A stretch of DNA of 64,000 bases from Histomonas meleagridis (taxonomy: Eukaryota > Parabasalia > Tritrichomonadida > Dientamoebidae). The position numbers and the translations under genes are program-made. The notes beneath the pieces are model-generated. The model saw only the letters and a list, made by a program, of their open reading frames with translations. It was not told where the DNA came from and made no database searches. How positions within the stretch are numbered: position 1 is the stretch's first letter; each line of letters starts with the position of its first letter. The stretch covers positions 1 through 64,000 of the forward strand of contig WSYJ01000155.1 of NCBI GenBank assembly GCA_020186115.1, given 5' to 3'. Below are positions 12,657 through 61,064 of the stretch, in pieces.

Positions 12657-15240
12657 AACCCGGAACATAAAAAACAAATTATTTTGATAATTTGATATAT
12701 GTTTTAATAATTTTATATATGTTTTAATAATTTTATATATGTTTTAATAATTTGAAACAGCACTTCATATAGCAGTTAGAAATAATAATATAGAAATAGT
12801 AAAATTACTTTTAGATAAAGGAATTGATGTTAATGCAAAAACTATTCATTTGAATAATTTGGAATATGTTTTAATAATTTATAATATGTTTTAATAATTT
12901 GGAATATGTTTTAATAATTTGAAACAGCACTTCATATAGCAGTTAGAAATAATAATATAGAAATAGTAAAATTACTTTTAGATAAAGGAATTGATGTTAA
13001 TGCAAAAACTATTCATTTGAATAATTTGGAATATGTTTTAATAATTTATAATATGTTTTAATAATTTGGAATATGTTTTAATAATTTGACACAGCACTTC
13101 ATATAGCAGTTAGAAATAATAATATAGAAATAGTAAAATTACTTTTAGATAAAGGAATTGATGTTAATGCAAAATATATTCATTTGAACAATTTGGAATA
13201 TGTTTTAATAATTTATAATATGTTTTAATAATTTGGAATATGTTTTAATAATTTGGAATATGTTTTAATAATTTATAATATGTTTTAATAATTTGGAATA
13301 TGTTTTAATAATTTGACACAGCACTTCATATAGCAGTTAGAAATAATAATATAGAAATAGTAAAATTACTTTTAGATAAAGGGAATTGATGTTAATGCAA
13401 AAACTATTCATTTGAATAATTTGGAATATGTTTTAATAATTTATAATATGTTTTAATAATTTGGAATATGTTTTAATAATTTGAAACAGCACTTCATATA
13501 GCAGTTAGAAATAATAATATAGAAATAGTAAAATTACTTTTTAGATAAAAGGAATTGATGTTAATGCAAAATATATTCATTTGAATAATTTGGAATATGT
13601 TTTAATAATTTGAAATATGTTTTAATAATTTGACACAGCACTTCATATAGCAGTTAGAAATAATAATATAGAAATAGTAAAATTACTTTTAGATAAAGAT
13701 GGAATTGATGTTAATGCAAAGATATTCATTTGAATAATTTTATATATGTTTTAATAATTTGGAATATGTTTTAATAATTTGGAATATGTTTTAATAATTT
13801 GGAATATGTTTTAATAATTTGGAATATGTTTTAATAATTTATAATATGTTTTAATAATTTGAAACAGCACTTCATATAGCAGTTAGAAATAATAATATAG
13901 AAATAGTAAAATTACTTTTAGATAAAGGAATTGATGTTAATGCAAAATATATTCATTTGAATAATTTGGAATATGTTTTAATAATTTGAAACAGCACTTC
14001 ATATAGCAGTTAGAAATAATAATATAGAAATAGTAAAATTACTTTTAGATAAAGGAATTGATGTTAATGCAAAATATATTCATTTGAATAATTTGGAATA
14101 TGTTTTAATAATTTGAAACAGCACTTCATATAGCAGTTAGAAATAATAATATAGAAATAGTAAAATTACTTTTAGATAAAGGAATTGATGTTAATGCAAA
14201 AACTATTCATTTGGATAATTTAGAATATGTTTTAATAATTTGGAATATGTTTTAATAATTTGGAATATGTTTTAATAATTTGAAACAGCACTTCATATAG
14301 CAGTTAGAAATAATAATATAGAAATAGTAAAATTACTTTTAGATAAAGGAATTGATGTTAATGCAAAATATATTCATTTGAATAATTTGGAATATGTTTT
14401 AATAATTTGAAATATGTTTTAATAATTTGACACAGCACTTCATATAGCAGTTAGAAATAATAATATAGAAATAGTAAAATTACTTTTAGATAAAGATGGA
14501 ATTGATGTTAATGCAAAAGATATTCATTTGAATAATTTTATATATGTTTTAATAATTTGGAATATGTTTTAATAATTTGGAATATGTTTTAATAATTTGG
14601 AATATGTTTTAATAATTTGGAATATGTTTTAATAATTTATAATATGTTTTAATAATTTGAAACAGCACTTCATATAGCAGTTAGAAATAATAATATAGAA
14701 ATAGTAAAATTACTTTTAGATAAAGGAATTGATGTTAATGCAAAAACTATTCATTTGAATAATTTTATATATGTTTTAATAATTTGAAATATGTTTTAAT
14801 AATTTAGAATATGTTTTAATAATTTAGAATATGTTTTAATAATTTAAAATATGTTTTAATAATTTATAATATGTTTTAATAATTTGAAATATGTTTTAAT
14901 AATTTGACACAGCACTTCATATAGCAGTTAGAAATAATAATATAGAAATAGTAAAATTACTTTTAGATAAAGGAATTGATGTTAATGCAAAAACTATTCA
15001 TTTGAATAATTTGGAATATGTTTTAATAATTTGGAATATGTTTTAATAATTTGGAATATGTTTTAATAATTTGAAATATGTTTTAATAATTTTATATATG
15101 TTTTAATAATTTGAAACATCACTTCATATATCAGTTAGAAATAATAATATAGAAATAGTAAAATTACTTTTAGATAAAGATGGAATTGATGTTAATACAA
15201 AAAACATTCATTTGAATCATTTATAATATGTTTTAATAAT
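12657..15240 (+). repeat. Composite satellite: ~95-bp ankyrin module plus 20-bp spacer units
   Basis: Two repeat levels are nested. The ankyrin module is almost invariant at the nucleotide level, and between modules lie one to about seven copies of a 20-bp unit (variants end TTGGAA, TTATAA, TTGAAA, TTTATAT). Near identity of synonymous positions shows recent amplification or gene conversion. Confidence 0.85.
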
Positions 15241-15341
15241 TTGGAATTTATTTCATCAATATTTTACCTCAATTGAAATTGCACAACAAATAGGTTACAT
15301 AGAATTAGTAAATTTGCTTCAAGAAAAAAAAAAAAAATGAA
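12657..15341 (+). pseudogene. Array of 14 ankyrin modules with AT-rich spacers
   Basis: Fourteen near-identical modules begin at CAGCACTTCATATAGCAG (about 12759, 12925, 13091, 13319, 13488, 13634, 13865, 13991, 14118, 14285, 14432, 14661, 14909, 15117). Each encodes one ankyrin repeat (TALHIAVRNNNIEIVKLLL then DKGIDVNAK). They are separated by 28 bp or by 28 plus multiples of about 20 bp of the unit GGAATATGTTTTAATAATTT, with stop codons. The last segment (SIEIAQQIGYIELVNLLQEK then TGA at about 15339) is a normal C-terminal ankyrin end. No N-terminal DUF3447 part is seen upstream. Modules 4 and 5 carry frame-changing extra bases, and modules 6, 11 and 14 have an in-frame extra codon. It is either a repeat-amplified pseudogene or a gene whose spacers are spliced. 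Confidence 0.75.
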
Positions 15342-16567
15342 AATTCCAATTCAGAATCATCTTCTATACTGATAAAGAATTCACAGTAGTAAACCGTATT
15401 CTTATTCTGAAAACCAGTCATGACTTGTAAATAGGATTTCCTATCCGCTGTCCACTTATTTTTGAAAATATCAGTAAACATTAAATCTTCATTTCCAATA
15501 AGAAATGGAAATGAAGCATGAATTGCTAATAATCAAAATCAGCTCGAAGATCAAATGTATATAGAAAAGATTAGAAAGAAAAATATCAAAACAAAAGCTG
15601 ATACAAACATACAAACATATGAAAATCATCAAAATAACAATATACATTATAACACTTTACCTATTGCCAAATGTATTCATAAAACAAAATATAAATACAT
15701 AAAGACGATAATATTATAAAGTGCACAACAAGAAAACCTCAATAAAAAATTGCTGGAAACAACATGACAAAGATCATGCAGGATTTTTTATAATAATTGC
15801 TTTGGGTTCAATGACTTTTTGATATCTGTACTTGTTTATTTAATGCTTTAAAAATATTTTTGGATCTTTTAGTTTTATATTATAATGTGGTCACCTTTCG
15901 GATGTTGAATTTTGTTTACAAACAACTAAATAATGTCTATATTTTTTGTTATGATATCATAAGAGCTGCTTTAAATGTTTAAAAGAAATTCCATAATTTT
16001 TGTTTTCGTTAATATGCATATATAAATTTTTGAAACTAAACATTTTATCTTTATCATTTTTATTAATATGTTTTAATCACTTATGTTTGGTAAAAATTCT
16101 ATGCATTTCATCGTTAATATCTTTGAAATTACTATTAATATATCTTATAAAAGAATTATATTTCAAAATTCTACTCATATATTTATTTAAAAAATCTAAT
16201 AATTCAACGATTTTATAGAAAATAAAAAAATGAGCTTCTCTGTAGAGCTTAATTCACTAATAATGTTGACAAACACACAAACCACATAATATTGTTTATT
16301 CCTTATCACCACAAATTCAACAATGGAAATAATTTTGAAAATTGAGATTTTTTATATTGTTCTTTATTAATCTTCCATGTAATATAATTTCTGATTAGAA
16401 TTTCAATTTTTTGTATACAATCATTTCATTGTAATTAATTTTAAAATCATGTAGAAATGCCTTTTGTAAATTATTGTGAGGCTGAAATACATTTCTGATA
16501 TTAATAAATTAAAGGCCTTTAATTTAACAAATGATAACATTACAATAAACCGTTTAAATTTTCAATG
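15342..16567. other. AT-rich stretch with possible coding remnants
   Basis: No intact gene. On the - strand about 15890-16220 encodes a Lys/Asn-rich helical run (ELLDFLNKYMSRILKYNSFI) interrupted by stops, possibly a decayed gene. Nothing else recognised. Confidence 0.3.
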
Positions 16568-16575
16568 TCACTTTT
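16568..16575 (+). promoter_or_regulatory. Inr-like motif before the coiled-coil gene
   Basis: TCACTTTT lies 30 bases before the ATG at 16598. It fits the trichomonad initiator pattern TCA-pyrimidine-T/A and supports this start. Confidence 0.45.
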
Positions 16576-16597
16576 TGCACGTTATTAAATCCAATAA

Positions 16598-18869: not shown

Positions 18870-19826
18870 ATGAGTCTTGAAGAATTACAAAAAAAGGAAC
18901 TCGAATTAAAGCAAAAAGAAGAAGAATTAAACAAGCGCGAACTAGAAATCAAGAAAAAAGAACAAGAACTTCAATCAATTCCTATGAGCGGAAACACAAG
19001 TTCTGAAACCATTGGATTGAATTCCCAATTATTTAATGACTATGCAAAGATATTCATTCTTAAGACTATTAATGAACAAGATTCTGATATTTAATTTTAC
19101 AATTTGGAATTTATCCACATTTTTTAATACTTTATTAATAAATGCATGCGCTAATGGACAAATAGATGTAGTTAAACTTTTACTAAGTCAAATGGGAATT
19201 AATGTTAACGCCAAAAATATTTTTTCAAACCATTTAATATTTGTTTTTAGTTTTTGATATTTCAACAAATTTTTTGGAATATTTTTATGTTATTTGAATC
19301 TGCTCTTCTGTGTGCAGTTTCCCACAACTACATTGAAATTGTTAAATTACTTCTTGAGTGTAATGGAATAAATATTAACATTTGCAATATTTCATTTTTC
19401 AATTTAATACCTTTATTAAACATATGAAATATCATTTTAATATTTAAAATTCCATTAAATAAAATGAAACACCATTTTTATGCGCAGCGAAATTTGGTTA
19501 CGTTGAAATGGTGAAACTTCTTCTTCAACAAAAAGGAATTGGAATTAATATGCAAAATAGTGATGTTTAACATAAGCATTCGGATTATATTGCAATTGTT
19601 TAATACAGCAATTATCGAAGCAGTGATTAAAGATCGCTACGAAGTTGTGAAGTTCTTGAAGGATGTAAAAGGAATTAAACTTGATTTTGTTTTTTGATTT
19701 GTTTTAAAGTTCAATCTTTTGTTTTGGTATTTGTTTCAAATATTTAAATCTGCAATTGAAGAGGCTAAAAAAAGAAAGAACAATAGGATGATCAATTTGC
19801 TTCAAAATGCCGAAGCTAAAAAATAA
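18870..19826 (+). CDS. Coiled-coil ankyrin-repeat protein interrupted by five AT-rich spacers
   Basis: The first open part (18870-19094) encodes MSLEELQKKELELKQKEEEL and more coiled coil, ending QDSDI. Five further open segments follow, each one ankyrin repeat: TLLINACANGQIDVVKLLLS, SALLCAVSHNYIEIVKLLLE, TPFLCAAKFGYVEMVKLLLQ, TAIIEAVIKDRYEVVKFLKD, and the terminal SAIEEAKKRKNNRMINLLQ to a TAA at 19826. Between them lie 35-100 bases of AT-rich DNA with stop codons and changing frames, each placed after the Asn/Asp-Ile at the end of a repeat and before x-Thr/Ser-Ala. All coding pieces are free of stops and keep the ankyrin consensus, so the gene is probably spliced, not dead. No GTATGT or ACTAACACACAG signal is seen. 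The exact exon edges cannot be fixed from sequence. Confidence 0.65.
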
Positions 19827-32966: not shown

Positions 32967-34991
32967 TTATTTATTTTCGTGTTTCTTTTGATTTTCCAAT
33001 TTTGCTGCTATTTTTGCGGCTCCATTTAGCGCAATATAGTCGGAGCAAATACCGGAATATGGTTCTTTACCAAAGTATCTCTTTATCATTTTTTTAACGC
33101 AAACAATATGCGATGAACCTCCCGAAAGTAAAATTTCGTCGACGTTTTCTTTAGACATATTTGCCTTTCGAAGTATATTTGTAAGATGTCCTTCTAATAC
33201 ATCAACAATAGCTGTTTGTATTAATCGTTTGAAGTCTTTACGCTTAAAGTCTTCTTGGATGAATTCATCTTGCTGATTTTGCCAATAAATTTTTGCATGC
33301 TTTAAAGACGATAATTGTCTTTTGGCACTTTCGCATTGACTTAACAAATATTTTGATTGTATTGGGTCACTTTTCACATCGAATTGATGCTTTTCTAGGA
33401 TAATTTTTGCGAAATGCTCAAATATTATTTGATCTATTAGATCACCGCCAATGTATTCATCACTTTCTATTGCTTTGATGAAATAGTTATAGTTATTATT
33501 GATGTAATTATTATTAACCACAGTTTTGTTTTCATTTATGAAATCAATGTTAACTAAACTAATCTCAAGTTCTCGACCAAAATCAAACACCAAAATATTT
33601 ATATTCTCTTTGGTGATACGCTCCCATCGTGCATTAATATATGCGTCAATCGAACATATTGGATTTTCAATAACACGAAGTGGCATTAAACCTGCCATGT
33701 TGGCTGCGTCATTAACGGATATCTTTTGTTCTTGATAAAATAATGCTGGTATTGTTATAACAGCATATTTGACTTTCTGATCATTAAGATAAAGCTCAGC
33801 GATTCGTTTCATTTCTTTGATTAAAATCGCTAACAGGCGCTCAGGGTAAATATCAACTTGTTCATTGTTATATATAACACGAATTTGTGCTTTGCCACCG
33901 TCAACAACATCAAAACCCCATTGATCCATTTTTTCTTTGACATCATCATAATCTTTTCCTAAAATTTTCATTATGTCATATACAAAATTTTTTGGCGTTT
34001 CATGTAACATTTCCTTGGCAGTTTTGCCTATGTAAATGTCTTTGCTGTTATCAGAAAAATAGAAACATAATAAAGTGGAACGGCTTTGGTATTCATTTTG
34101 AACAACTACAATGGAATTATCTTGGTGTATGGCAACTGAACATGAATGGTTGGAAATTTGAATAGCAATAATCGGAGATACGTCTTGCTTGATTGAGTCA
34201 AAAATTGGGGTAGATAGTATCTCTTTTGCTGAAGGTCGTTCTTCAGGATCGATTACAAGCATTGATTCAATTAAATTACGAAAAACTTCGTTCACTATTT
34301 CGGGGATTTCGTTTAGATCACCACTAACAACTCTGTTGCCCAAAGCATATATATTTTGGGCATCAAAAGCATGTTTTAATGTACATAATTCATATAGAAT
34401 ACATCCTAATCCCCAAATATCGACCTTATTATTATATTCTTTACCTTCAAAAATTTCGGGCGATAGATAGAGTGGTGTTCCGATTTGTGTATGGGCTAAT
34501 TCTTGTGTGGATTGAAGAGATCTTGAAATGCCAAAATCACCTAATTTAATTGTACCATCACTATTTAAAAAGATATTGCTTGGTTTAATGTCTCTGTGAA
34601 TAACTTTTTTTGAATGGATATATTCAACTGCTTTCAAAATTTGAAAAAAATAATCGAGAATAATATTATCCGGTATCCTACATTTGTATTCCTTGAACCT
34701 TTTGATTTTTCCCAATAAATCTCCACCATCTACATAATCCATGACGATATGAAATGTGTGATCTTCTTTATCTTTAAAACTTGTGATATACTTAACAACA
34801 TTTGGGTGGTCATCTAGAGACTTGAAAAGTTCGACTTCTTTTAGAATTTTTTCCTCACTAAATTTATCATTTTCGAGATTGAATGTTTTAAAAACGCATA
34901 CTTTATTGGTTGATTTTTCTTTTGCAAGAAACGCTTTACAGGTGGCACCAAAGTTGAGGTATTTTATTATTTCGAAGTTATTTTTCATCAT
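32967..34991 (-). CDS. NEK-like protein kinase fused to an Hsp70-type ATPase domain
   Basis: About 674 residues from the Met-Met pair at 34991; an upstream ATG (35048) adds 19 hydrophobic residues of doubtful reality. The first 270 residues are a NEK-like kinase: LNFGATCKAFLAK, Lys in CVFKTFN, VIHRDIKPSNIFL, KLGDFGISR, GTPLYLSPEI. All catalytic residues are present. After it, about 380 residues align with the Hsp70/actin-fold nucleotide-binding domain: IAIQISNHSCSVAI (phosphate 1), VITIPALFYQEQ, VFDFGRELEISLV (phosphate 2), YIGGDLIDQIIFEHF, and LSGGSSHIVCVKKMIKRYF (adenosine motif). There is no substrate-binding domain. By eye, the phosphate-1 Asp is Gln and the catalytic Lys is Met, so ATP hydrolysis by this half is doubtful. 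A kinase-chaperone-fold fusion is not something I know from any family. Confidence 0.85.
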   Translation of the reverse strand: MMKNNFEIIKYLNFGATCKAFLAKEKSTNKVCVFKTFNLENDKFSEEKILKEVELFKSLDDHPNVVKYITSFKDKEDHTFHIVMDYVDGGDLLGKIKRFKEYKCRIPDNIILDYFFQILKAVEYIHSKKVIHRDIKPSNIFLNSDGTIKLGDFGISRSLQSTQELAHTQIGTPLYLSPEIFEGKEYNNKVDIWGLGCILYELCTLKHAFDAQNIYALGNRVVSGDLNEIPEIVNEVFRNLIESMLVIDPEERPSAKEILSTPIFDSIKQDVSPIIAIQISNHSCSVAIHQDNSIVVVQNEYQSRSTLLCFYFSDNSKDIYIGKTAKEMLHETPKNFVYDIMKILGKDYDDVKEKMDQWGFDVVDGGKAQIRVIYNNEQVDIYPERLLAILIKEMKRIAELYLNDQKVKYAVITIPALFYQEQKISVNDAANMAGLMPLRVIENPICSIDAYINARWERITKENINILVFDFGRELEISLVNIDFINENKTVVNNNYINNNYNYFIKAIESDEYIGGDLIDQIIFEHFAKIILEKHQFDVKSDPIQSKYLLSQCESAKRQLSSLKHAKIYWQNQQDEFIQEDFKRKDFKRLIQTAIVDVLEGHLTNILRKANMSKENVDEILLSGGSSHIVCVKKMIKRYFGKEPYSGICSDYIALNGAAKIAAKLENQKKHENK

Positions 34992-35302
34992 CTCCACAAA
35001 CAATATAATTAAAAATGCCAAAACATAAATTGTTGTAACCGTTATCATTTCAGAAGTTTACTTGCAAATGCATCCAAGCTGTTTTTAGAAACAAGTTTTT
35101 TTTTAATAAACCTTATCAATACTTTTTGTTATCAAATCTATTATTTCCTTTAGCTTGTTCAAACGAAAATAAAGCAAAAATTAGAACTTTATTATTTGAA
35201 AAAAAAAATAATTTTGAACATGTTCAAAGAAGCCTATGATCTTGTGTGTGAGCTGTTCTGAAAGAACCAAAAAATTATCCACTATAAATTTTATGTATCT
35301 AA
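34992..35302. other. Promoter side of the NEK-Hsp70 gene and 3' flank of a Rab gene
   Basis: Apart from the possible 57-base N-terminal extension of the kinase gene, no coding sequence seen. Confidence 0.4.
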
Positions 35303-37089: not shown

Positions 37090-39108
37090 CTCATCAAAAT
37101 ACTTAAATATACTACTTGAACTTCAACAAATAGTTTTTGATTTAAATGATAAAAACTTTGAATTATCAATTGAACAAACAATCAAAATTTTTGATATAAA
37201 TTGTCCATTTTCATGTAATTTGATTATAAGCAAATTAATTTTTTTTTTGCATTTTATTCCCAAATAAAAGCAAATGATATTTATATAAGTTATTTAGAAA
37301 AAATTCAAACAAAAGAAGAAGAAATCGATAAAAATAATGCAATGATTATTAAAATTTTTAATGATTATATAAGTAGAATTGATTTACAAGAATCATGTTG
37401 TTTAATTGATAGAATGCTTCAAAAAAAATTAATTGATGAAAATATTGTTAAGTCCATCCCTTTAATATATTTTGCACACTATTAAACAGAAGAAGAAAAC
37501 AAACGGAGGAAATACTCTGATTGCATTATTTTTGGATTGGGAACTTCATAAAAAATATGTTAAAGAAGGTTAATCCAAATAAAATTGCTGTAATAATTCG
37601 AAATGATGAAATAGAGAAACTTCAAGAAATATCAACACAAACAAATTTTGATTTTAATCAAATAATTGAACCATCACTTTATGAAAGTTGTTCATTTATT
37701 AATCAATATGATGTTAAATTAATTGATTATGCTGCATTTTTTGGATCAGTTAAATGTTTTAAATATTTGCATATGAATGGTGCAAATGTAAATAAAACAG
37801 GTAAATATGCAATTGCAGGTGGAAATGAAGAAATCATTCATTTATGTGAACAAAATCATTCATCATTTATAAATGCATATGAAATGGCAATTAAATTTCA
37901 TCGAAATGATATCTTTAAATATATTTATGAAAATAATATCGGAGTTGGTGATTTGGAATATTTGGGAAATTTATGTATTAAATTTTATAATTTTGAACTT
38001 TTTAAAATTTAATTAATGAAGGTTTGAAAATTAATGATGATTTAATTAACAAATCAGTAAAAGTTGGAAATATTTTTCTTGTTAAATAATTTCTTCAAAA
38101 TAATCCGATTCCAATGCAAATTTTAATCCATGCTTCATTATCAGCAACAGAGAACATTGAACTTATCAAATTTATTTTAGAGCAAAAAGACATTGATATT
38201 AATGCTAAAGATATTTCATTTTTTTATTTAATTTATTTTAATGTATTGAAACTCCAATATATTATTTGGATTTTGTTTAAATGATTTCATACTGCTCTTA
38301 TGATGGCATCAAAAAATGGTTACTCAGAAATCGTTAAATTACTTATTGAACAAAAGGGAATAGATATCAATGCTCAAGATATTAAATTATATTATTTATA
38401 ATTTATTATAGAAATTTAGTGTTTCAAAATGATATTTGGAATTTGATTAAAATATTTAATACAGCACTTATTTGTGCAACTGAAAAAGGAAATTTTGAAA
38501 TAGTTAAATTACTTCTTGAACAAAAAGGAATTGATGTTAATGCTAAAGATATTTATTCGTTTTATTTAATATTTATTTTAATAATTTAGTGTTTCAAAAT
38601 AATAATTGGATATTGATTTAAATATTTAATATAGCACTTATTTGTGCAAATGAAAAAGGAAATTTTGAAATAGTTAACTTACTTCTTAAACAAAAAGGAA
38701 TTGATGCAATACAATCGCAGAATATTGAAACTATTAAATTAATGCTTGAACAAAAAAGTATAGATGTTAATGCTAAAAATATTCACTTATTTTATTTTTT
38801 ATTTGTTTTAATAATTTCTTATTTCAAAATAATGATTGGAAATCATTTAAATTATTTCAAACAGTACTTATTAGAGCATCTGAAAAAGGTTATACAGAAA
38901 TAGTTAAATTACTTCTTGAACAAGAAGGAATTGATATTAACGCTAAAGATATTTATTTGTTTTATTTAGAGTTGATTTTATTATGATAATGTTTCATAAT
39001 AAAATTTGGTGATTATTTAAATTATTTAAAACAGCACTTATGAAAGCATCTGAAAATGGTAAAATAGAAATCGCTAAATTAATACACGATAGAAAATCCT
39101 TTGTTTAG
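37090..39108 (+). pseudogene. DUF3447-type ankyrin gene with spacer-interrupted repeats
   Basis: The N-terminal part (37,090-37,520) is frame-broken. A 163-codon open part (37521-38012) is the conserved trichomonad ankyrin-associated region (SLYESCSFINQYDVKLIDYA, AIAGGNEEIIHLCEQNHSS). Then follow at least five ankyrin modules, TALMMASKNGYSEIVKLLIE, TALICATEKGNFEIVKLLLE, IALICANEKGNFEIVNLLLK, TVLIRASEKGYTEIVKLLLE and TALMKASENGKIEIAKLIHD, ending at TAG 39108. They are separated by 75-100-base AT-rich spacers with the TTTGGA...TTTAAATTATTT block just before x-Thr-Ala. The third module carries an internal deletion. The repeat modules are free of stops, whereas the N-terminal part is broken, so the gene as a whole is probably defective. 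Confidence 0.6.
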
Positions 39109-44031: not shown

Positions 44032-47000
44032 ATGAACAACCATACAATCATATTCGAAGCTGTATTTTCCAGACTAATTGAATCATTTGCGAGTAATGTT
44101 TATAGTGTTCTCAGCGATTTTGAACAGAAAAACCCATTAATTCCATCAGCAGCGAAGAGTGATCTCATTCTTGAGGACATTTTTCGACAGTTTCCGAGAG
44201 AAATTCCTTTATACATCGAAATAATTGATCAGCTAACTTTATTAAGTAAATGTAATACAGAAGTTATTTTACATTACCTATGCAAAATGACCAAGCGAAT
44301 ATTAAAAGGAGCACGTGATACACCTCTTGGTGTTTTACAAGGAATGTCCACAAGCTTTGATCCTAACAATCGGCACCACATATTATTATTTCATTATTTT
44401 TCATTATTTTTTCTTACAGATTTAATATGTCACATTTGTGTCAATTCTCCACCTCATGATCAAAAAGTATGTATTGAAATATCACGAGTAGGTTATAACA
44501 TCGCTATATCTCAACCACTTTTACCCAATGTTTGGAAAACATTAATTAATCAATGGTCTGTCATTTACTCTATTCTTTCCGAAAATGCGTTTGGGTCAAT
44601 TTCCACCATTTTTTCCATGTTTAATCCATCGCTGTCTTTTTCACTTCCACTCCGTTTAATGCGATTTGCACGATTTGATTCCGATGATTCGATGGGTCAA
44701 TTTTTTTTCACAGAAGTCTTTACGATATTACAAAAACATGGGAAGAAACGAACTATTACAAACTCTATTTTAGAATCTCTTTCATATTTAGTAGTAACAT
44801 TACCATTTTCTGAAAACATATTACAAAAACTCGCGTTAATATCATATGGACTTCGACATGACAAAAGTTTATATCTAAATGCATTTCTCCTTTTTACTGC
44901 CGTTGCGATTCGTTATCAAAAGATTTGGAGTCGTTGCATAAAATCATTTCAACGGAAAATTTTACCGAAAGCAGCAAAAAGAAGTAAATTAAAAACCGTC
45001 TTGCAAATATTCAAAATATTGATGTATGGTAGAGACGTCGATCCTAATTGGATGTTTTGGGTATGGGGCCGTAATTCACGTGCTTCACCATTATCTTATA
45101 TCAAATATAACAGTTCGGTTCAATTCAATCAAGGCGAAAATTTCAATTTTTTTTCATCGTTCATAACGTACTTTTACCAAAAAAGTGACTTTTCGGTATG
45201 CCCCAAATCGTTTATGGAAGTTTTAGTACATTTTGCATCATTAGACTTTGATTCATTTATGAAGTTAATTGTACCCAAATTTATTAACTTACCTAGTAAT
45301 GATTCACGTTTTTTATCATTTATGATGTCAGTTTCATTAATTAATTCTAATGATTTCAAACAAAATGCATTTAAATTATATAGTGAACAACAAATTAAAC
45401 AATTTAATAACTTAATTAAACAAAGAGTTATCTCAATATTAACGTTATGTGAAGGACGAAATGAAAAAAAAGGAGTTTGCATAACAAATAGCGAAGTCTT
45501 TTTAGCTTCATTAATTGAAGAAGCAGATCAAAAGTTAACGCAATTGTTTTCTGATTGGGGCATTGAACAATTTGGTAAATTATTAATCAAATTAAATCGA
45601 TGTGAACAAAACACAAATCGAATTCCTTTGTTAGAGAACATATTACCATCCGTACGCTTTGTTTTTTCGGAAGAAGATTTCATGAATCCGTCGATAATGC
45701 GAATATTAATTGAGTTAAGTTTCCATCAAAATATAAAAATTGCAACAGCTGCATATCATATTTCGAAAAATGTTTTATCGAATTTACCAAATGTATCACA
45801 ATATTTAACAATTTTATGTTCATTTTTAAAATCGGACATTGATCCAGAAGCGATTTTTATAGTCTTGACATTAATATCAGATACATTTCAACATATTAAA
45901 GAAGAAATTAAAGATGAATTAATGTATGACATTGAATATGTTACATTTATGCAATTATCATCAATATATCCTAATACACGACATTTATCTTTTTTGATAT
46001 TACAACAATTACATGAAATATTACAAAGTAATTGTATTTATCATATAATATTTAGTAAAATGAATCAAATCAAAAAAATAGTAAAAACTAAAGTGTTATT
46101 ACATAAAATACCAAATTTACCTGACGTTAATCCATTACCTTCGAATTATATTAACTTCGAAACTTCATTAATATCACATTATTATGATATATGGATATTC
46201 TTTTTATCGGAGATTATGAATTGTTTAATATTATCGAATTATTATCAATTATTAAGTCGAATTGATAAATATAAAACTTCTTTCTTCGACTTAATCTTAA
46301 ATGAATCGAAAAATCGAAATCCAAGTGACATTGGATTATTATTAATTATATTATCATCACAATATTATATATCTAAACGACATCGATTATCATTTGAAAA
46401 CAAAAAAACTTCATTAAATATTGAAACTAAAAATACTTCACGTTCTTTAGTAATAAATGTATTAACACAAATATTACAAAATGAAAATGATCGAATTTGT
46501 CAAATGGGATTTAATGTATTACCACATTTAAATGTATTATTATATTCATTAGTGATTGAACTGATCTCAAAAGTATCTATTGATCGATTATCTGATGCTA
46601 CATTTGTATTAACGTTAATATTACGATCACCAGATTTAGATAAACATTTTTTTAAGCGTAATATTCGAAAGATTATTCAATTCATGAGTATTATGCAATA
46701 TTATTTCATTAAAAAGAAATTAAATGGTTCGAGAAATATACAATGGACACCTGAAAGTGAGACTAAACTTTCATGGGAATCTTCTTTATTAAGGAATTAT
46801 TGTTTAATTGTTTCAGTGTCATTTAGTTGGTTCACTGATCCAATTTCTGATGATATATGGCCTTTATCATTACGTGAAATGGTTTTTCGATTTTTATTAA
46901 ATTGGTCAATGACTAAAACTGTTTCATTAACATCATTAAGAGCTTATGCATCTAATGCTTTAGTTACTATAACAAAACTTGGTACATATTTTAATGATTC

Positions 47001-49371
47001 TTTAATATTCGATGAGAAAACAGTTTCATTTTTCGGTAAATTAGAATTCGATGGAATGCCAGTGTTAGCAAACATCTTAAATTTTCATTTAGATTTATTA
47101 TTAGAAACTTATATCATTGCTTGTTATACACAACCTCGAAGTATAGCTGATTGTTTTTTCGAGGCTATAATTCAATGTATACAAGTGAAGAATAGTAAAT
47201 TCATTTATCCTTCAAGTGGTTCATTATTATTATTAATTGGAGTTTTTTATATTAGAGAACATCCAAATGCACGTGAATTACTAAATAAATATATATTAAT
47301 AATCGAATCGATAAATAAAAATGTCGATTTTAAAGTGTTAAAAGAATCAATACAAAAGAATCAATTCATTAATATATTACCAAAATATTTCACATTTGCA
47401 ATTGAAGCAATTTTTTCATCATTTTTTAAGTTATTAAAAATGAAGAATTTACATGTGCCAATTAAAGAAATTATCGAAGCAATTCGTCCTTGGACATTAG
47501 TAATTCGATTATTACCTAAACAAAGTATATGTGCACAAGAAGTTACATCGATATTTAGTTATTTTACACCATATCAATTCTTACGTAATTTAATGGAAAC
47601 AACAGAAATCGTCGATGATGATCAATTTAGAACTATTGCTTCAATATGGGTATCATTAGTTAAATCTCCTGATCATACTGATATTGTTCCATTATTTATA
47701 TTTAATTGGAATAATATTGAAACAAAACAAAAACTTTTCGGAGTTCTTTTGGATTCGTATCCTGAAAATATAACAGAGAAATTATCTATACGTTGTTCTT
47801 TTTCTTTTTTTTATCATGTGACTAAATGTTTAAAACAATCGTTTACTTCTGAGTTATGGATATCCCCATTATTAGTACAAGTGTTTACTAAGAGTTGGGA
47901 TATATTATTACCTTTAATCCCTTCTGTGATTCATTTTAGTATAATATTTAGAGATAATCAATTAGTTAAACCACTTTTCGAAGTGTTTTGTAATAAACTT
48001 GATATTGATTTACCTGATAATGAAATCTCTTTAACAATATTTAGAGATATTATCGATCAATTAATTATAAAAATAGATTCGATTTCATCCGAATATGTAA
48101 TTTCTTGGGGTAATGAAGCATTAAAATGGATAATAGGTTCTTCCGACTTAAAACTTACAACAATTTCTTTCATTACTTATAATCGTATTAGAAAACCTAA
48201 TGATATAATTGTGATAAATAGTATTGTACGTACTGTTTATTATTTTTTGAATTCAAATGAGAAATATGATTCGAAACTTTTGTCGGAATTAGTAACTGAA
48301 TCATTTATATTTTATAATGAAGTCTTTTCTGGTAATGAGAAATTTGTTTTTGATTATGTTTGTACATTTTTGGATTGTCGTTTATTTGTTGAGAATAGTT
48401 TAATTCATGCGTTAAATATCTTTAAGAAATGTTTTTTATTTCCTGGAACACATAAAAAAGCTTATGAGAATTCGACATCTATAATTCGACCTTTATTACC
48501 TAAACTTGAAACTGATACTGAGATTCAAGCGTTAGTTGATGAAATAATTAAAGGTATTAAATCGGAAGAAATTATGATGATAATTGCACCTATTAAAATG
48601 AATCGGCCGCAATTATTTACTTCTTGTCCTAACGTTAATGAGCTTTTATCGAATGTTAGTGATAGTGCATTATGTAAATCATTATTACATTATTCAATGA
48701 TGTTAAAATATTGTTCACGACCTGTAATGAATTCTATTTTCGAAATTTCGGCTTTAATAGTTTCGAAAATAATAAATGAAAATAATTTAACTTCTCTTTC
48801 GAAGATATATCAAAACGCATTACATTCGATATCGAAATGTTCTTCTGCGTTACATTTCATTCGTGTAATCGCAAATAGAGAACCGAAAGTTGCGACTTTA
48901 GGTGTAATTGATATATATGAATGGGATCGAAGTATTGAAGACGTAATTCGAGGATTACGAATTTTAATTGTTCCCGACGATTCACCAATTGTTACTATCA
49001 CTGATTGTTATTCATATATAACTGTGACTCGATTTTTAAGTTCAGATTCTTCACCAAAAATTTTGCCGTTCGCTACACAAAGTGAAATTATCACCGGAAT
49101 GATGCGAGTGAATAAGGCGCATAGATCTCATAAACAATTGGCTATCAGAAGATCACCGCAAAATTATAGACTAAAATCAACGAGTTTAATCGCAAAGGAA
49201 AAATTCGATGATAACTTAATAGGTGTAGAAGATAAATTGACGCCGCTGTTACACCCGAAAAAATTGATATTTCAGCCGGAAAAATTGACGTTCCATCATA
49301 AGAACTCAAGAAAATTGACTTTCGAAATGGATGTCATACATAAAAACAAAAGAACTTCAATTAATTTGTGA
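44032..49371 (+). CDS. Giant helical-repeat protein, Furry/Tao3/Mor2-like
   Basis: 1,779 residues from the first ATG in frame (44032). The frame is open 18 codons further but only via TTG. The whole protein is helical with ARM/HEAT-like runs and no enzyme motif. The N-terminal segments (IFEAVFSRLIESFASNVYSV, LPNVWKTLINQWSVIYSIL, LRLMRFARFDSDDSMGQFFF) and length suit the Cell-morphogenesis N-terminal region of Furry/Tao3 proteins, which scaffold NDR/LATS kinases for polarity and cell shape. Members elsewhere are 2,000-3,000 residues, so this one is shorter. The tail (RKLTFEMDVIHKNKRTSINL) is basic. Identification is by overall look, not by exact motif. Confidence 0.6.
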   Translation: MNNHTIIFEAVFSRLIESFASNVYSVLSDFEQKNPLIPSAAKSDLILEDIFRQFPREIPLYIEIIDQLTLLSKCNTEVILHYLCKMTKRILKGARDTPLGVLQGMSTSFDPNNRHHILLFHYFSLFFLTDLICHICVNSPPHDQKVCIEISRVGYNIAISQPLLPNVWKTLINQWSVIYSILSENAFGSISTIFSMFNPSLSFSLPLRLMRFARFDSDDSMGQFFFTEVFTILQKHGKKRTITNSILESLSYLVVTLPFSENILQKLALISYGLRHDKSLYLNAFLLFTAVAIRYQKIWSRCIKSFQRKILPKAAKRSKLKTVLQIFKILMYGRDVDPNWMFWVWGRNSRASPLSYIKYNSSVQFNQGENFNFFSSFITYFYQKSDFSVCPKSFMEVLVHFASLDFDSFMKLIVPKFINLPSNDSRFLSFMMSVSLINSNDFKQNAFKLYSEQQIKQFNNLIKQRVISILTLCEGRNEKKGVCITNSEVFLASLIEEADQKLTQLFSDWGIEQFGKLLIKLNRCEQNTNRIPLLENILPSVRFVFSEEDFMNPSIMRILIELSFHQNIKIATAAYHISKNVLSNLPNVSQYLTILCSFLKSDIDPEAIFIVLTLISDTFQHIKEEIKDELMYDIEYVTFMQLSSIYPNTRHLSFLILQQLHEILQSNCIYHIIFSKMNQIKKIVKTKVLLHKIPNLPDVNPLPSNYINFETSLISHYYDIWIFFLSEIMNCLILSNYYQLLSRIDKYKTSFFDLILNESKNRNPSDIGLLLIILSSQYYISKRHRLSFENKKTSLNIETKNTSRSLVINVLTQILQNENDRICQMGFNVLPHLNVLLYSLVIELISKVSIDRLSDATFVLTLILRSPDLDKHFFKRNIRKIIQFMSIMQYYFIKKKLNGSRNIQWTPESETKLSWESSLLRNYCLIVSVSFSWFTDPISDDIWPLSLREMVFRFLLNWSMTKTVSLTSLRAYASNALVTITKLGTYFNDSLIFDEKTVSFFGKLEFDGMPVLANILNFHLDLLLETYIIACYTQPRSIADCFFEAIIQCIQVKNSKFIYPSSGSLLLLIGVFYIREHPNARELLNKYILIIESINKNVDFKVLKESIQKNQFINILPKYFTFAIEAIFSSFFKLLKMKNLHVPIKEIIEAIRPWTLVIRLLPKQSICAQEVTSIFSYFTPYQFLRNLMETTEIVDDDQFRTIASIWVSLVKSPDHTDIVPLFIFNWNNIETKQKLFGVLLDSYPENITEKLSIRCSFSFFYHVTKCLKQSFTSELWISPLLVQVFTKSWDILLPLIPSVIHFSIIFRDNQLVKPLFEVFCNKLDIDLPDNEISLTIFRDIIDQLIIKIDSISSEYVISWGNEALKWIIGSSDLKLTTISFITYNRIRKPNDIIVINSIVRTVYYFLNSNEKYDSKLLSELVTESFIFYNEVFSGNEKFVFDYVCTFLDCRLFVENSLIHALNIFKKCFLFPGTHKKAYENSTSIIRPLLPKLETDTEIQALVDEIIKGIKSEEIMMIIAPIKMNRPQLFTSCPNVNELLSNVSDSALCKSLLHYSMMLKYCSRPVMNSIFEISALIVSKIINENNLTSLSKIYQNALHSISKCSSALHFIRVIANREPKVATLGVIDIYEWDRSIEDVIRGLRILIVPDDSPIVTITDCYSYITVTRFLSSDSSPKILPFATQSEIITGMMRVNKAHRSHKQLAIRRSPQNYRLKSTSLIAKEKFDDNLIGVEDKLTPLLHPKKLIFQPEKLTFHHKNSRKLTFEMDVIHKNKRTSINL

Positions 49372-50801: not shown

Positions 50802-50816
50802 CCGCCTGAATTTCAA

Positions 50817-56110: not shown

Positions 56111-56734
56111 TAAAAAATGAGATCAAATGTAACCAATACAGGAACTTTCAAATTCTTGAAAGGATTGGAAAGAATTCCACAAGTTAAAGTCAATGTTGGT
56201 GTGTGGTCTGAATAATCATTTTAAAAAAACTGACTTTGGACATTTCCTGATGGTCCAAACCCTTCTCACATCAAATACAAACCTACAAAGTTTTCTATTT
56301 TTTCTAGAGAATGCGAATATAATGACAAAATTTATGAATTTCTTATTGAAGATTTAGTATTTTCAGAACATATGTGCACATGGGGTCATGCCATGATACT
56401 TTATATCTCGCGTGTATGTCGTGAAAGTTATACTTATGCAATTTCAGATATATTACCACAAATGATGGAACATGGTCCCACAATACCACGTGTTTTAGTG
56501 GTGGATGACTGTAAAAAAACCAAAGAAAGTTGGGTAGTTTATGAAGAAGAAATTCAAAAAATCTTTAAAGACGGGAAATTCAAATATTTGGTTAATTGTG
56601 ATGTTGATGAGTTGTTTGGCTGTGAAGAAGTTATATTATATTGTGTGAAACGTATGAAAGATATGAAAAAAAACAAACAAATAAGCATCACATGTTTCAA
56701 CATGAAATTTGTAAAATATCTTAATAAAATATAA
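56110..56734 (+). pseudogene. Decayed gene with intact C-terminal 120 codons
   Basis: An open frame from about 56372 encodes MCTWGHAMILYISRVCRESY, VLVVDDCKKTKESWVVYEEE and KYLVNCDVDELFGCEEVILY, a normal globular protein. Upstream the same protein seems to continue in broken frames (RSNVTNTGTFKFLKGLERIP, PNPSHIKYKPTKFSIFSREC), with a stop near 56215. I do not recognise the family. Probably a pseudogene of a trichomonad-specific gene. Confidence 0.5.
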
Positions 56735-56925
56735 TCTACTTTAAAGTATTACAAAAATCAACTTCAAATGCTTCGAGTCATCATCATATACCCAAATCAA
56801 AAAGAATGATTCCAAAGAATAAATTGCAAAATCACATGAAGTATAAGAGAATCTTATGACAGCATCTTTAAAGAATGAAAAATATGATATTATGGTGAGA
56901 TAATTTTTATGAAATTGAAATGAGA

Positions 56926-57540
56926 TTATGAACCACCACAACAACCCTTAGATTTATTTGGTTCCGAGTTCGTAATATCCACATTAGTGGTTTCTTCTGC
57001 TGTTTTTGATTGATTATGAGTTTCCTTTGATTGAACAAATTCATGTGCTACCATTTGAATAAGTTCATTAACACCACTTCCAGTCTTTGCACTAATTTCA
57101 TAGAACGATGCATGAATCTCTTCTGCTTTGGCTATTCCTTCATCTATTGGGACTCCATCTCCTTCGCGTGGCAGATCAATTTTGTTACCAATCAAAAATA
57201 ATAGAACATTGGTTCCACTATTCTCAGTTAGGCTAGTAACCCAGTAATCAATGATTTCAAAAGTCTTCCTATCAGCTACTGAATACACGATAAAGCCTAT
57301 TTGTGCATCACGACAATAAATTGGTGAGAGGCACCTATACCTTTCTTGTCCAGCTGTATCCCAGATTTGTAGCTTTACTTCTTTGTCATCAACTTCAATT
57401 GTTCGGTATGAATAACTTGCTCCAACTGTTGTTGAAATTTGATCATCATATGTGTCAGTTATAATCCGATTCAAGAGTGATGTCTTACCGACTGAGGTGT
57501 CCCCAAGAAGTACAACTTTTGCGCTAAAACTTTTTTTCAT
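56926..57540 (-). CDS. Rab-like small GTPase
   Basis: 204 residues. GDTSVGKTSL, T in STTVGASY, WDTAGQERYR, GNKIDL, EISAKTG and C-terminal KGCCGGS (two cysteines followed by GGS, an unusual but acceptable prenylation end). The rest of the domain resembles Rab5-like/Rab-X types. It is not adjacent to the other two Rabs and only moderately similar to them, so it is not part of the inverted pair. Role in vesicle traffic inferred from family only. Confidence 0.9.
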   Translation of the reverse strand: MKKSFSAKVVLLGDTSVGKTSLLNRIITDTYDDQISTTVGASYSYRTIEVDDKEVKLQIWDTAGQERYRCLSPIYCRDAQIGFIVYSVADRKTFEIIDYWVTSLTENSGTNVLLFLIGNKIDLPREGDGVPIDEGIAKAEEIHASFYEISAKTGSGVNELIQMVAHEFVQSKETHNQSKTAEETTNVDITNSEPNKSKGCCGGS

Positions 57541-59000
57541 CTCTTCTGCAACGATTGGACGGTTATTTAAAATAACATTTTTCTCTGGTTTATTAAAATA
57601 AATTTTTGAATTTGAAATTTGACAATAACTTAATTTTTGCCAAAATTCAAATCATTGTGGAAACAATCAAGAAATGTGAGATGTATCCTTCATTATTATT
57701 AATTATAATCTTCAAATATTTTATTTCTATGTGAAGGAGAAGTTCATCAAATTTTTACCTGGTTTTATTATCAATAATTTAATCATTTTCAAAATTGTAT
57801 CATTGACTTATATAAAAAATGTTAAATTTTTGATTTGACATAATCATATTTATATCTATTTTAATTTTTCCTCATTGCACGACCACAATTCATTTTGAAC
57901 AATTTTATTTGTAATTAATTATTTTAGCTTTCGAAAAGCGAAACATAGCAAATATTAATTTTGTCTCTTTTTCATCTGCATTTAGTGTTTATTTAAATCT
58001 AGAATTTGTTTTTCATAAGTAAGATGCATAGATTTTGACGATTGAAATTCGACTTTTTAAGAGGATATTTCAAAGCTGGATAGCGGTTAGTATGTATCGT
58101 GTTATTCAAAAAGATCTATCGTAAAATTTATAAAAATTAAAATATATACAATATGAATTTATACTACAAAGTCATGACGGATCAATTACACAACCGCAGA
58201 CCAAACCTCCAAATCCTCTCAATCGATTTTTAAAAAGTAAATTTCGAACGATATAAAACGATCCCACTTTTTAAAAGAAATTATTATTCTATCAATTTGA
58301 TTTTCAATAAAAATATAAATGACACCTATTTTGAATGAAAATAGAAAATGAAATACAATTTGGCAAAATACAGTCCGATTAAAAGACATTAAAAAAGTGG
58401 TGAGTGTCACAATAACTTATTGAATACTTTATGAATGTGTAAACTATTCATTGATCAAAGTTGAAATTTGAGTAAAACTATATTACGTCATATATATACC
58501 TAAAGTTTATTAGAATGATTTAGATATGATTATGACCGAAATTTATATGATAGCATTAAATTCGAATCTTATATATAAATATTCATTATTTCTGATATTT
58601 TTTTTCTGTTGTAATGAAATATGATATAAAAATATTCTTCGATCCATCAAATTTGTATTTATATAATTCTAATAGTTCAAATATCATGAAATAATTATAT
58701 TGTATTTAAACAAAGCGGATTTATAACAAGTCTATTTCGATAATTGGATATCATCCTTTTATCATTTCGATGAATTTGGATTTAAATAATATATCATTCG
58801 AATTATATCTGTATTTATATTTTTTGATGCTATCATATGCACTGTTTTACATGTTTATAAGTAATTCCAAATGTTTATATGAAATATCTATATTTCCGAA
58901 TATAATTTGAAAATACCAAATGATTAAAATGAATACAAAAGAAAATAAATATCTATAGTATTAATATCATATTATTTTTGTTCCATAAGTAATTTAACTA
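57541..59000. other. Long gene-free stretch
   Basis: AT-rich. No gene on either strand. The last part approaches a decayed ankyrin module. Confidence 0.4.
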
Positions 59001-61064
59001 TTTATGCATGACCACTTGAAGATGCCCATTATGCTGCTTATAATATTTAAGATAAAATTACTAAAGTGTTTTTTTCATAGAATAAATAAATATCATTAGC
59101 ATTTATACCACCGATTTCTTTTTGTACTTTTGCAACTGCATAATGACCTTGTCATATTGCACAATTTCATATAAATTACAAAAGATATAACACAGTAAAT
59201 ATTCATGAGGTACAAATAGGTTGAGCATTAATATTAATCCCTTCATGTTCAATAAGTAATTTAACTATTTCTAAATGACCAAATTCACATGCTCTCATTA
59301 GTGCTGTCCAAAATATTAAAAACAAACACCAATTATTTGATTGAAAACCAAAATTGTTAAAATCGACTTTAAACAAAACAAATTAAAACCTTGATCATTA
59401 ACATCAATTTCTTTTTGCTCAAGAAGTAATTTAACAATGTCTATATTACCTTGTTGAGATGCCTAAATAAGTGCTGTTTGAAATAATTCAAACAATTTCC
59501 AAATATTTACCAAAACATCATAAAATTAGTCAAAAAAATCCATAACATCATGAACAAACTTCTTTATCATTGATTTTTATTCCTTTTTGATCAAGAAGTA
59601 GTTCAACAATTTCTCTATGTCCAAGATAAGATGCTGTTATATGTGCTGTATCAAATAATTTAAATCATTTCCAAATATAATTATAAAATATCAAATTATA
59701 TAAATAAATTCGATTTCATAATTAAAAAATGTACTAGCATTAATATTAATCTTTTTTTGTTTAAGAAGTAGTTCAACAATTTCTCTATGTCCAAGATAAG
59801 ATGCTGTTATAAGTGCGGTTGAAAAAACATTATATGAATATTGGAATAACGAGTGAAACATGAAAATAAAGAAAATAACAAGATTAAAAACAAATTATAT
59901 CCTTTAGAATTAATGTCATATTTCTCATGATTGAGAATATATTTAATAAGTTCTATATTCCCTGAATTTGCAGCATAAGAAATGATATCTTTTGGTAATT
60001 TATTTTCTCTTAAAAAATCTTTTTATAAGAAGAAAATTACCATACTGCGCCAAATTATTGATTATTGATTCATCAATTTCCATCCCTTTATCTAGTAAAA
60101 CTGAAAAAAGTTCATAATTATTGTATTTAATACATATCAGTCCTAAAATGTTCATATCTATTTCCGTAAGTTTCTCTTCATAAAGATATTTAAATATATC
60201 ATTTCGATGAAATTGAATTGCTGTTTCAAATGCACTTTCAAATGATGAATGATTCTGTTCACATAAATGAATGATTTCTTCATTCCCACCTGCAATTGCA
60301 TATTTACCTGTGTTTTCTACATTTGCGCCATTCATAAGTAAATATTTAAAACATTTGATTGAAGAAAAAAATGCTGCATAATCAATTAATGTAACATTTT
60401 CATGATTAATAAATGAACAACTTTCATAAAGTGATGGTTCAATTGTTTGATTAAAATCAAAATTTGTTTGTGATGATATTTCTTGAAGTTTTTCTATTTC
60501 ATCATTCCGAATTATTAAAGCAATTTCATTTGGATTATATCCTTCTTTTAGTAATTTCTTATGAAGCTCCCAATCATTTTTTGAAAGATTTTCGATATTT
60601 TTAACAAATTTATCCCAAAACATAACAATGCTCATCGAATGAAACCCAGAAATACTTCCATGATTCTTTAAATGTTCAACTTCTTCAGCATTTTTATAAT
60701 GAATAAAATATAAAAAATGATCATTATCTAATTCACTGGGTGAAATTAAATTTTTATCAATCATCTTTTGAAAAATATAACATATTCCATCGTGTTTATA
60801 AAAATTATTTAATGAATTTCGGAAAATTTCTATAATATTGATTTCATTTTTGATTTCTTGATTTAATTCAATAAGAAATTGTAGTATTAAATCCGCATTA
60901 TATCCTCTTGAATAGTAAAAAGAAAAAATAATCATGCATATTATTGTATATAAAGAATTTTCTTGACTTTCTCCAATTAACGTTGTAATTATTTGAACCG
61001 TTTCCCCAATATTATCTTCTTTTAAATTATATATATTATTTTCTATTTTCGAAATTATATCCAT
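59000..61064 (-). pseudogene. DUF3447-type ankyrin gene with spacer-interrupted repeats
   Basis: From ATG 61064 (MDIISKIENNIYNLKEDNIG) the first 355 codons (to TAA at 60000) are open and hold the DUF3447 region (SLYESCSFINHENVTLIDYA, YAIAGGNEEIIHLCEQNHSS). A single extra T in a T-run (60012-60017 on the + strand) then shifts the frame. Without it the protein would continue LRENKLPKDIISYAANSGNI. After that at least four ankyrin modules follow on the - strand (ALITASYLGHREIVELLLKQ, AHITASYLGHREIVELLLDQ, ASQQGNIDIVKLLLEQKEID with a TAG before it, ALMRACEFGHLEIVKLLIEH), separated by 80-95-base AT-rich spacers. TCATAAC stands about 20 bases before the ATG as an Inr-like motif. The stop in module three and the frameshift suggest that this copy is inactive. 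Confidence 0.65.

What the first reader, a model, noticed from the sequence alone, without database searches (positions are those of the whole stretch)
12657..61064. Ankyrin genes with an AT-rich spacer after every repeat, always at the same codon position
Seen: at four loci (12657-15341, 18870-19826, 37090-39108, 59000-61064) every ankyrin module is followed by an AT-rich spacer (28 to ~100 bp). The upstream piece ends after the Lys-Asp/Asn-Ile of one repeat, and the downstream piece starts just before x-Thr/Ser-Ala of the next. Joining Asp-Ile plus two residues to x-Thr-Ala restores the 33-residue ankyrin period. Spacers contain stops in the reading frame and are not multiples of three. Their 3' parts share TTTGGAA...TTTAAATTATTT. 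No GTATGT 5' or ACTAACACACAG 3' trichomonad intron signal is present. Inference: either an undescribed class of repeat-phased introns with novel signals or a regular decay or amplification of these families.
Basis: partly seen in the sequence, partly recalled or inferred. Interest (0 to 1): 0.88.

Follow-up and report, generated by a model that had tools for sequence, protein, structure and literature searches.

The report
Unknown spacers splitting every ankyrin repeat
In the genome of the poultry parasite Histomonas, a very large family of ankyrin genes is cut after each repeat by a short AT-rich stretch whose length comes in steps of 20 bases; the pieces between stay readable as protein while the stretches do not, so something not yet identified must remove or skip them.

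Summary
The window is Histomonas meleagridis (exact contig-length match). Ankyrin modules are separated at a fixed place, after Lys-Asp-Ile and before x-Thr-Ala-Leu, by AT-rich spacers. Of 250 clean junctions in 34 loci, 218 measure 17+20n nt, or that plus one exon codon (25 expected); in nine loci not picked for spacers, 56 of 65. Diverged spacers often keep 77 nt. Modules behave as coding DNA (9 stops, 146 expected neutrally); in-frame spacers do not (16, 14 expected). One 23-nt spacer core has 1,294 exact genomic copies (control 0), 1,133 directly before NNNACAGC. Canonical GTATGT...ACTAACACACAG introns exist here but that exact motif is very rare; spacers are depleted of usable GT-AG pairs. 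A related gene has contiguous repeats; another mixes contiguous and spaced junctions.

Best reading: a new class of intervening sequence, most likely removed from RNA, in a genome reported to have 573 introns. Removal was not observed: no transcripts were available, and no joined protein turned up. In the window only locus 2 (18870-19826) looks intact; loci 1, 3 and 4 carry damage.

The parts
18870..19091 (+). Locus 2, exon 1: ATG start, coiled-coil-like N terminus ending Ser-Asp-Ile
   Evidence: open frame; end placed; no DUF3447
19092..19128 (+). Locus 2 spacer 1, 37 nt, begins with TAA in the upstream frame
19129..19221 (+). Locus 2 ankyrin module
   Evidence: module HMM hit
19222..19298 (+). 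Locus 2 spacer 2, 77 nt
19299..19391 (+). Locus 2 ankyrin module (SALLCAVSHNY...)
19392..19468 (+). Locus 2 spacer 3, 77 nt, strongly diverged (65% identity to the 74-nt consensus) yet exact length
19469..19567 (+). Locus 2 ankyrin module, two codons longer at its end
19568..19604 (+). Locus 2 spacer 4, 37 nt, begins with TAA in the upstream frame
19605..19691 (+). Locus 2 ankyrin module (TAIIEAVIKDRYEVVKFL...)
19692..19748 (+). Locus 2 spacer 5, 57 nt
19749..19826 (+). Locus 2 last exon with stop codon
   Evidence: translation (SAIEEAKKRKNNRMINLLQNAEAKK*)
12757..15208 (+). Locus 1: 14 ankyrin modules (HIAVRNNN type) with spacers made of a 20-nt tandem unit; no head seen; two modules frameshifted (13318-13410, 13486-13578) and a third off by one base at its end (13635-13727)
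15209..15265 (+). Locus 1 last spacer, 57 nt, read from the sequence
   Evidence: direct reading
15266..15340 (+). Locus 1 terminal coding piece (TSIEIAQQIGYIELVNLLQE..., stop)
   Evidence: direct reading
37090..38122 (+). Locus 3 head with DUF3447 (37791-38006), broken into several frames
38123..39108 (+). Locus 3 ankyrin modules with spacers 75, 77, 77, an irregular 137 (holds a module remnant), 77, and a terminal coding piece
60000..61064 (-). Locus 4 DUF3447 head, 354-aa open frame (DUF3447 at 60099-60317, 52.3 bits); the frame breaks near 60000
59820..59896 (-). Locus 4 first spacer, 77 nt
   Evidence: L052
58948..59819 (-). Locus 4 ankyrin modules with spacers 77, 79, 77, irregular 174; one stop in the third module and a decayed last module

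Best explanation
These are functional multi-exon ankyrin genes whose repeats are separated by non-coding intervening sequences of a new class. Shown here: modules are kept coding, spacers are not; the spacers sit at one fixed place in the repeat; their length mostly comes in 20-nt steps; their 3' end is usually ATTT followed by one coding codon and Thr-Ala-Leu; they are poor in GT-AG pairs and lack the trichomonad signals. Inferred: the spacers are removed from the RNA before translation (splicing in the broad sense). They would be recognised mainly through the 3' TTTGGAA...ATTATTT block and the ~20-nt U/A-rich units rather than through a 5' splice site, and they spread with their module by exon-spacer unit duplication plus gain or loss of 20-nt units. 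Whether the ordinary spliceosome or another machine does it is open.
For: Modules: 9 in-frame stops in 213 unique 93-nt modules against 146 expected under neutral change (lowest of 200 simulations 108). Spacers: 16 in-frame stops in 34 of 38 sixty-nt spacers against 14.3 expected (range 4-24), so they are not translated. 32 of 38 arrays with at least 3 spacers have no stop in any module except the last. Heads: 96 of 107 scored matches to a 385-aa head have no stop (6,971 candidates), 148 of 150 scored for the DUF3447 domain (1,695 candidates). Gene ends: in 12 of the 38 arrays the last module meets a stop 20-27 codons after its Thr. The codon just before Thr has 0 stops of 250 against 25.8 expected; the third codon before Thr has 87 against 77, so the 3' boundary lies within one or two codons. 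Length: 218 of 250 junctions in 34 loci fall in 2 of 20 classes; 56 of 65 in nine loci not picked for spacers. Comparators: a DUF3447 gene with contiguous repeats (L024) and a gene mixing contiguous and spaced junctions (L004). Head proteins from unnamed sources stop at the junction (8 of 19) or run into a spacer-like tail (8 of 19). Prp8 is present and a canonical intron occurs.
Against: No transcript or peptide was seen. Of 22 unnamed-source proteins with two or more recognised modules, none shows the 33-34-residue spacing of joined modules; they read through in-frame spacers, 51 residues apart as a rule; if those contigs are RNA, that counts against removal. The 5' boundary has no conserved word and the first codon after Ile is not protected from stops (6 against 7.8 expected). 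Ordinary introns need no fixed length, so the 20-nt quantisation is not explained by splicing. dN/dS between modules is weak evidence: 0.66-0.73 above 10% divergence in the 77-nt type; 1.09 at 10-20% and 0.54-0.89 above in the 60-nt type; about 1.1 for the closest pairs; 0.57-2.56 in the tandem-unit type. No genomic copy with the tested joined junctions was found. Three of the four loci in this window are damaged.
Confidence: 0.62

Rival explanations
1. Decay: the gene product is the ~400-aa head alone, and the repeats beyond the first spacer are amplified, untranslated debris.
For: Locus 1 is a headless minisatellite-like array with frameshifts; loci 3 and 4 are broken. dN/dS of near-identical pairs is about 1 or more.
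Against: Stops in modules are depleted about 16-fold against neutral expectation; gene ends recur at the same place in 12 of 38 arrays; contiguous and mixed relatives exist.
Confidence: 0.13
2. DNA-level removal or rearrangement: the spacers are excised from DNA in some nucleus or life stage, like ciliate IESs, or serve as recombination sites of a module archive.
For: AT-rich, non-coding, length in regular steps; Paramecium IESs show a ~10-bp length periodicity (passages of PMC3464196).
Against: Removal between the flanking ATTT copies would leave 8 nt, the wrong frame, and one consensus pattern of that product (up to 2 mismatches) has 0 hits in the genome. A second nucleus is not known in parabasalids (recalled). 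The 20-nt step is also explained by the tandem unit.
Confidence: 0.08
3. Programmed ribosomal bypassing: the spacers stay in the mRNA and the ribosome hops over them, as in mitochondrial byps and phage T4 gene 60 (recalled).
For: Short, AT-rich, non-coding, near-exact lengths, no splice signals.
Against: Up to ten or more hops per protein, some over 100 nt; no conserved hairpin (RNAalifold consensus empty; no covariation for the one near-palindrome). Identity of take-off and landing codons was not tested.
Confidence: 0.07
4. Ordinary GT-AG introns with overlooked signals.
For: The genome has Prp8 and at least one clear GTATGT...ACTAACACACAG intron (L060).
Against: Only 25 of 248 unique spacers hold an in-frame GT-AG pair, against 77 in shuffled spacers; 42 hold no GT at all. 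ACTAACACACAG occurs 3 times in the genome (control 2).
Confidence: 0.04
5. The in-frame 60-nt spacers are translated as a 20-residue insert.
For: In 22 unnamed-source proteins modules recur mostly every 51 residues with a conserved insert.
Against: 16 of 38 Histomonas 60-nt spacers hold in-frame stops, stops are not depleted, changes are not concentrated at third codon positions, and the commoner 77-nt form is out of frame. The protein collection lists open frames only, so its sample is biased.
Confidence: 0.04

Closest known systems
Trichomonas spliceosomal introns, types A and B (PMC12316389, passages read)
   Same: Short intervening sequences in a parabasalid; some lie in ankyrin genes; as short as 23 nt.
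   Different: All 63 in T. vaginalis are GT-AG with a fused ACTAACACACAG-type branch/3' motif; two introns in a gene is the most reported there (T. stableri); the spacers have neither signal and recur after every repeat.
Paramecium internal eliminated sequences (PMC3464196, passages read)
   Same: AT-rich, within coding sequence, periodic lengths.
   Different: DNA removed from the somatic nucleus, unique copies, ~10.2-bp periodicity (TA ends recalled); here 20-nt steps, no direct-repeat rule in frame, many related copies.
Non-conventional introns of euglenids and non-canonical introns of Oikopleura and Fritillaria (recalled, no paper read)
   Same: Intervening sequences without GT-AG.
   Different: As far as I recall, none is tied to one protein repeat or quantised in length.
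Mitochondrial byps / translational bypassing (recalled; review PMC5009743 seen only in a search listing)
   Same: Short AT-rich non-coding inserts at many places in reading frames.
   Different: Mitochondrial, a few dozen nt; mechanism not tested here.
DUF3447-ankyrin genes of Tritrichomonas and unnamed sources (P0029, P0042 sequences read; P0073, P0130 seen as listings and as tree rows)
   Same: Same kind of head and ankyrin repeats.
   Different: Listed as continuous frames; P0029 and P0042 have contiguous repeats.

Membership tests
Trichomonad spliceosomal introns | 5' GT (GYAYGY) boundary with AG at the 3' end | tested here: not met
   In-frame GT-AG pair in 25 of 248 unique spacers, shuffled mean 77; in-frame GTATGT...AG 0 of 248
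Trichomonad spliceosomal introns | 3' ACTAACACACAG branch/splice motif | tested here: not met
   Motif occurs 3 times in 43 Mb (control 2); the three loci fetched are not ankyrin arrays
Introns in the broad sense (removed from RNA) | Spacer-free transcripts | not testable with these tools
   No transcript data held; frame and selection evidence only
Introns in the broad sense (removed from RNA) | Flanks coding, interior not coding | tested here: met
   Stops 9 against 146 expected in modules, 16 against 14.3 in spacers
Ankyrin repeat (PF12796) with DUF3447 head (PF11929) | Profile match over the curated cut-off | tested here: met
   window heads at 60099-60317 and 37791-38006. Not met for locus 2's exon 1, which is a different head
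Ciliate-type IES | TA or other direct-repeat ends whose removal restores the frame | tested here: not met
   Flanking ATTT copies leave 8 nt; one consensus pattern of that product 0 hits; 53 of 58 tandem-unit spacers start CAT, without the TA
Ciliate-type IES | Spacer-free DNA in a somatic genome | tested here: inconclusive
   Two joined patterns found no module junction in the assembly; other nuclei or stages not testable
Self-splicing introns (groups I and II) | Conserved catalytic RNA structure | tested here: inconclusive
   No Rfam match in the one locus scanned, L050 (21 module hits); no consensus structure in spacers; most spacers are 37-97 nt, too short for these groups (recalled)
Programmed ribosomal bypassing | Spacer kept in mRNA but absent from protein | not testable with these tools
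   Needs RNA, ribosome profiling and peptides

The most novel reading that the evidence does not exclude
Histomonas and a close relative remove thousands of intervening sequences by a machine other than the canonical GT-AG spliceosome (or by a spliceosome using wholly different recognition), which needs spacers of 20n plus a constant in length and is tied to one place in the ankyrin repeat. The number of intervening sequences in the genome would then be several thousand rather than 573.
Probability: 0.3. Interest if true: 0.95.

Novelty: new variant of a known kind. Interest (0 to 1): 0.82.

Why it matters
A genome described as having at most one intron per gene appears to hold several thousand uniform intervening sequences without any known splice signal, in ankyrin genes. 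If removed from RNA, they would be a very dense set of non-GT-AG introns in a parabasalid, and a natural array of thousands of related test substrates. A large ankyrin family may also have been missed or truncated in annotation: only three named Histomonas proteins were among the 40 hits to this head, although the genome search scored 107 head matches out of 6,971 candidates. The 20-nt length rule would be a new constraint on how an intervening sequence is recognised.

Tried and rejected
Hidden GT-AG, GC-AG, AT-AC or AT-AG introns: at or below the shuffled level, AT-AC slightly above (200 against 194 of 248). Translated 60-nt spacers: disfavoured by stops and codon positions. Conserved RNA hairpin: consensus fold empty; a near-palindrome in the 77-nt consensus pairs best in register (70% of cells) but shows fewer double changes than slid controls. 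Single-sequence folding z is -0.98 on average over 60 related spacers, 9 below -2, not pursued. Direct-repeat excision: wrong frame, no joined copy of one pattern. Genomic copies with the junction joined in frame: 8 hits with 3 mismatches against 2 control, none a module. Viral contigs: no exact spacer core. Spliced relatives in the protein collection: none seen. A head tree places spacer-bearing Histomonas heads, unnamed-source heads and the contiguous L024 in one clade (support 90/99) with most inner forks unresolved and the bootstrap unsettled, so gain or loss order is open. Exact 5' boundary: not resolved.
Full report
WHERE IT IS. The assembly holding the window has 43,276,120 bases in 121 contigs; its contig C120 is 3,384,422 bases long. 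The published virulent Histomonas meleagridis assembly has a largest contig of exactly 3,384,422 bp and a total of 43,414,808 bp in 187 contigs (passages of PMC8529796). I take the organism as H. meleagridis, a parabasalid parasite of poultry; the smaller contig number may reflect what is held here. That paper reports 573 introns with at most one per gene; the word ankyrin does not occur in its main text. Its annotation used AUGUSTUS trained on a transcriptome (section read).

OBSERVATION. The four loci are as described. Ankyrin modules are followed by an AT-rich spacer that starts after Lys-Asp-Ile (or its equivalent) and ends one or two codons before Thr-Ala-Leu. Locus 2 (18870-19826) is the only one without visible damage: five spacers of 37, 77, 77, 37 and 57 nt and stop-free pieces from ATG to stop; its first exon is not a DUF3447 head. 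Locus 1 is an array of 14 nearly identical modules without a visible head, three of them out of frame at or before their end. Locus 3 has its head in several frames. Locus 4 has a frame break near the end of its head, one stop in a module and a decayed end.

GENOME-WIDE. A search of the own genome with Ank_2 gave 9,115 first-look candidates, of which 150 were scored; DUF3447 gave 1,695, of which 150 were scored, 148 of them without stops inside. The 23-nt spacer core TTTGGAAATTATTTAAATTATTT has 1,294 exact copies (control 0), and 1,133 copies are followed by any codon and ACAGC. In my sample 35 of 180 spacers without the tandem unit carry the exact core, which extrapolates to about 6,700 spacers; the sample was chosen by ankyrin and head matches, so this is a rough figure. 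A second type is built from a 20-nt tandem unit; its exact dimer matches 96 times, overlapping matches counted.

LENGTH RULE. In 250 junctions with clean module ends from 34 loci, 174 have lengths of 17+20n and 44 have that plus three, mostly one more codon on the upstream exon (the Lys-Asp-Asn-Ile form); uniform expectation for two of 20 classes is 25. Taking one junction per locus, 83% fall in these classes. Twenty of the loci were picked because they hold an in-frame spacer, which favours 57 and 60; in the nine loci not so picked (the window, L051, L053, L054, L056-L058, L062, L063) it is 56 of 65, one of the 56 being the irregular 137 of locus 3. Diverged spacers keep the length: among 93 77-nt spacers without the tandem unit the 10% quantile of identity to the consensus is 65% and the lowest 54%. 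Deviations occur (13 junctions are one nt longer, 19 fall elsewhere), so the rule is strong, not absolute. The tandem unit (period 20) explains how steps of 20 arise; why diverged copies keep the length is not explained.

CODING AND NON-CODING. From the module consensus, neutral change of the observed size would give 146 in-frame stops in 213 modules (lowest of 200 simulations 108); 9 are seen. The same test on 34 of 38 sixty-nt in-frame spacers gives 14.3 expected (range 4-24) and 16 seen, and changes in them are not concentrated at third positions. dN/dS between modules is a weak witness: 0.66-0.73 above 10% divergence in the 77-nt type, 1.09 and then 0.54-0.89 in the 60-nt type, about 1.1 for the closest pairs, erratic in the tandem-unit type. 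Of 38 arrays with at least 3 spacers, 32 have no stop in any module except the last; in 12 of the 38 the last module meets a stop 20-27 codons after its Thr, the others ending in a further spacer, at a locus end or at another distance. Heads of about 385 residues are stop-free in 96 of 107 scored matches.

BOUNDARIES. The codon just before Thr has 30 different forms and 0 stops of 250, against 25.8 expected from column composition; the codon before it is mostly TTT (218 of 266); the one before that has 87 stops, against 77 expected. So the downstream exon starts within the last one or two codons. On the upstream side the codon after Ile is not protected (6 stops, 7.8 expected), so that boundary is not resolved. 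Contiguous ankyrin junctions in the same genome have 9 nt in 25 of 28 short gaps (20 of 23 without the overlapping loci L009 and L025), which favours keeping 9 nt and removing 20n+8; keeping 6 nt (removing 20n+11) is not excluded.

COMPARATORS. L024 is a DUF3447 gene of the same head clade with contiguous junctions of 9 nt; it carries a frame break of its own. L004, a more distant gene, has contiguous junctions and, at four others, spacers of 26, 26, 60 and 61 nt, with its end intact. These do not follow the 20-nt rule, but all end in TTT before the last codon. Head proteins from unnamed sources: of 19 (P0001-P0022 without the three named Histomonas proteins), 8 end at the Ile or Val of the junction, 8 run into a spacer-like tail, 1 reads through an in-frame spacer and 2 are otherwise cut. 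P0001 is at most 64% identical to the 107 scored own matches, so it is probably from another species; the others were not so compared. Of 50 shorter array proteins examined, 22 have at least two recognised modules, spaced 50-57 residues (51 in 23 of 28 spacings, one 102) and never 33-34. The heads of the unnamed-source proteins mix with Histomonas heads in a tree with many open forks, so the arrangement is probably older than Histomonas. Whether those contigs are DNA or RNA I could not tell; if RNA, the read-through ones would count against removal.

SPLICING CONTEXT. A Prp8 domain lies in one 2,333-residue frame. ACTAACACACAG occurs three times in the genome (control 2); at L060 it lies behind GTATGT between two long frames, very likely a canonical intron. 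The strict combined pattern with a short spacing gave 0 hits. T. vaginalis introns are all GT-AG with that kind of motif (passages of PMC12316389). The spacers lack both: 25 of 248 unique spacers have an in-frame GT-AG pair, fewer than in shuffled spacers (77), and 42 have no GT. No stable consensus RNA structure was found.

CONCLUSION. The modules are parts of translated genes and the spacers are not translated; therefore they must be removed or skipped. Removal from RNA is the most economical reading, but the step itself is inferred. I found no description in print in the searches (open-licence full texts only).

Noticed in passing
window 5511-6557 (-): A 348-aa frame with DUF5906 and VapE-like matches, of the kind seen in mobile or viral replication genes (recalled).
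   Followed up: no
L060 (G000:C91:123554) and L061 (G000:C103:164251): Likely canonical trichomonad introns in this genome; the exact motif ACTAACACACAG is very rare. Of these two, GTATGT was found upstream at L060 only.
   Followed up: partly
L004, about 1370-1395 and 1945-1970 of its reverse strand: Two 26-nt junctions in an otherwise partly contiguous ankyrin gene would be intervening sequences of only about 17 nt.
   Followed up: partly
window 44032-49371 (+): A 1,779-aa open frame without any Pfam match.
   Followed up: no
window 32967-35048 (-): One frame joins a protein kinase domain and an HSP70 domain.
   Followed up: no
P0143-P0173: Ankyrin frames from unnamed sources with a 51-residue period, in-frame 60-nt spacers giving a conserved insert.
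   Followed up: partly
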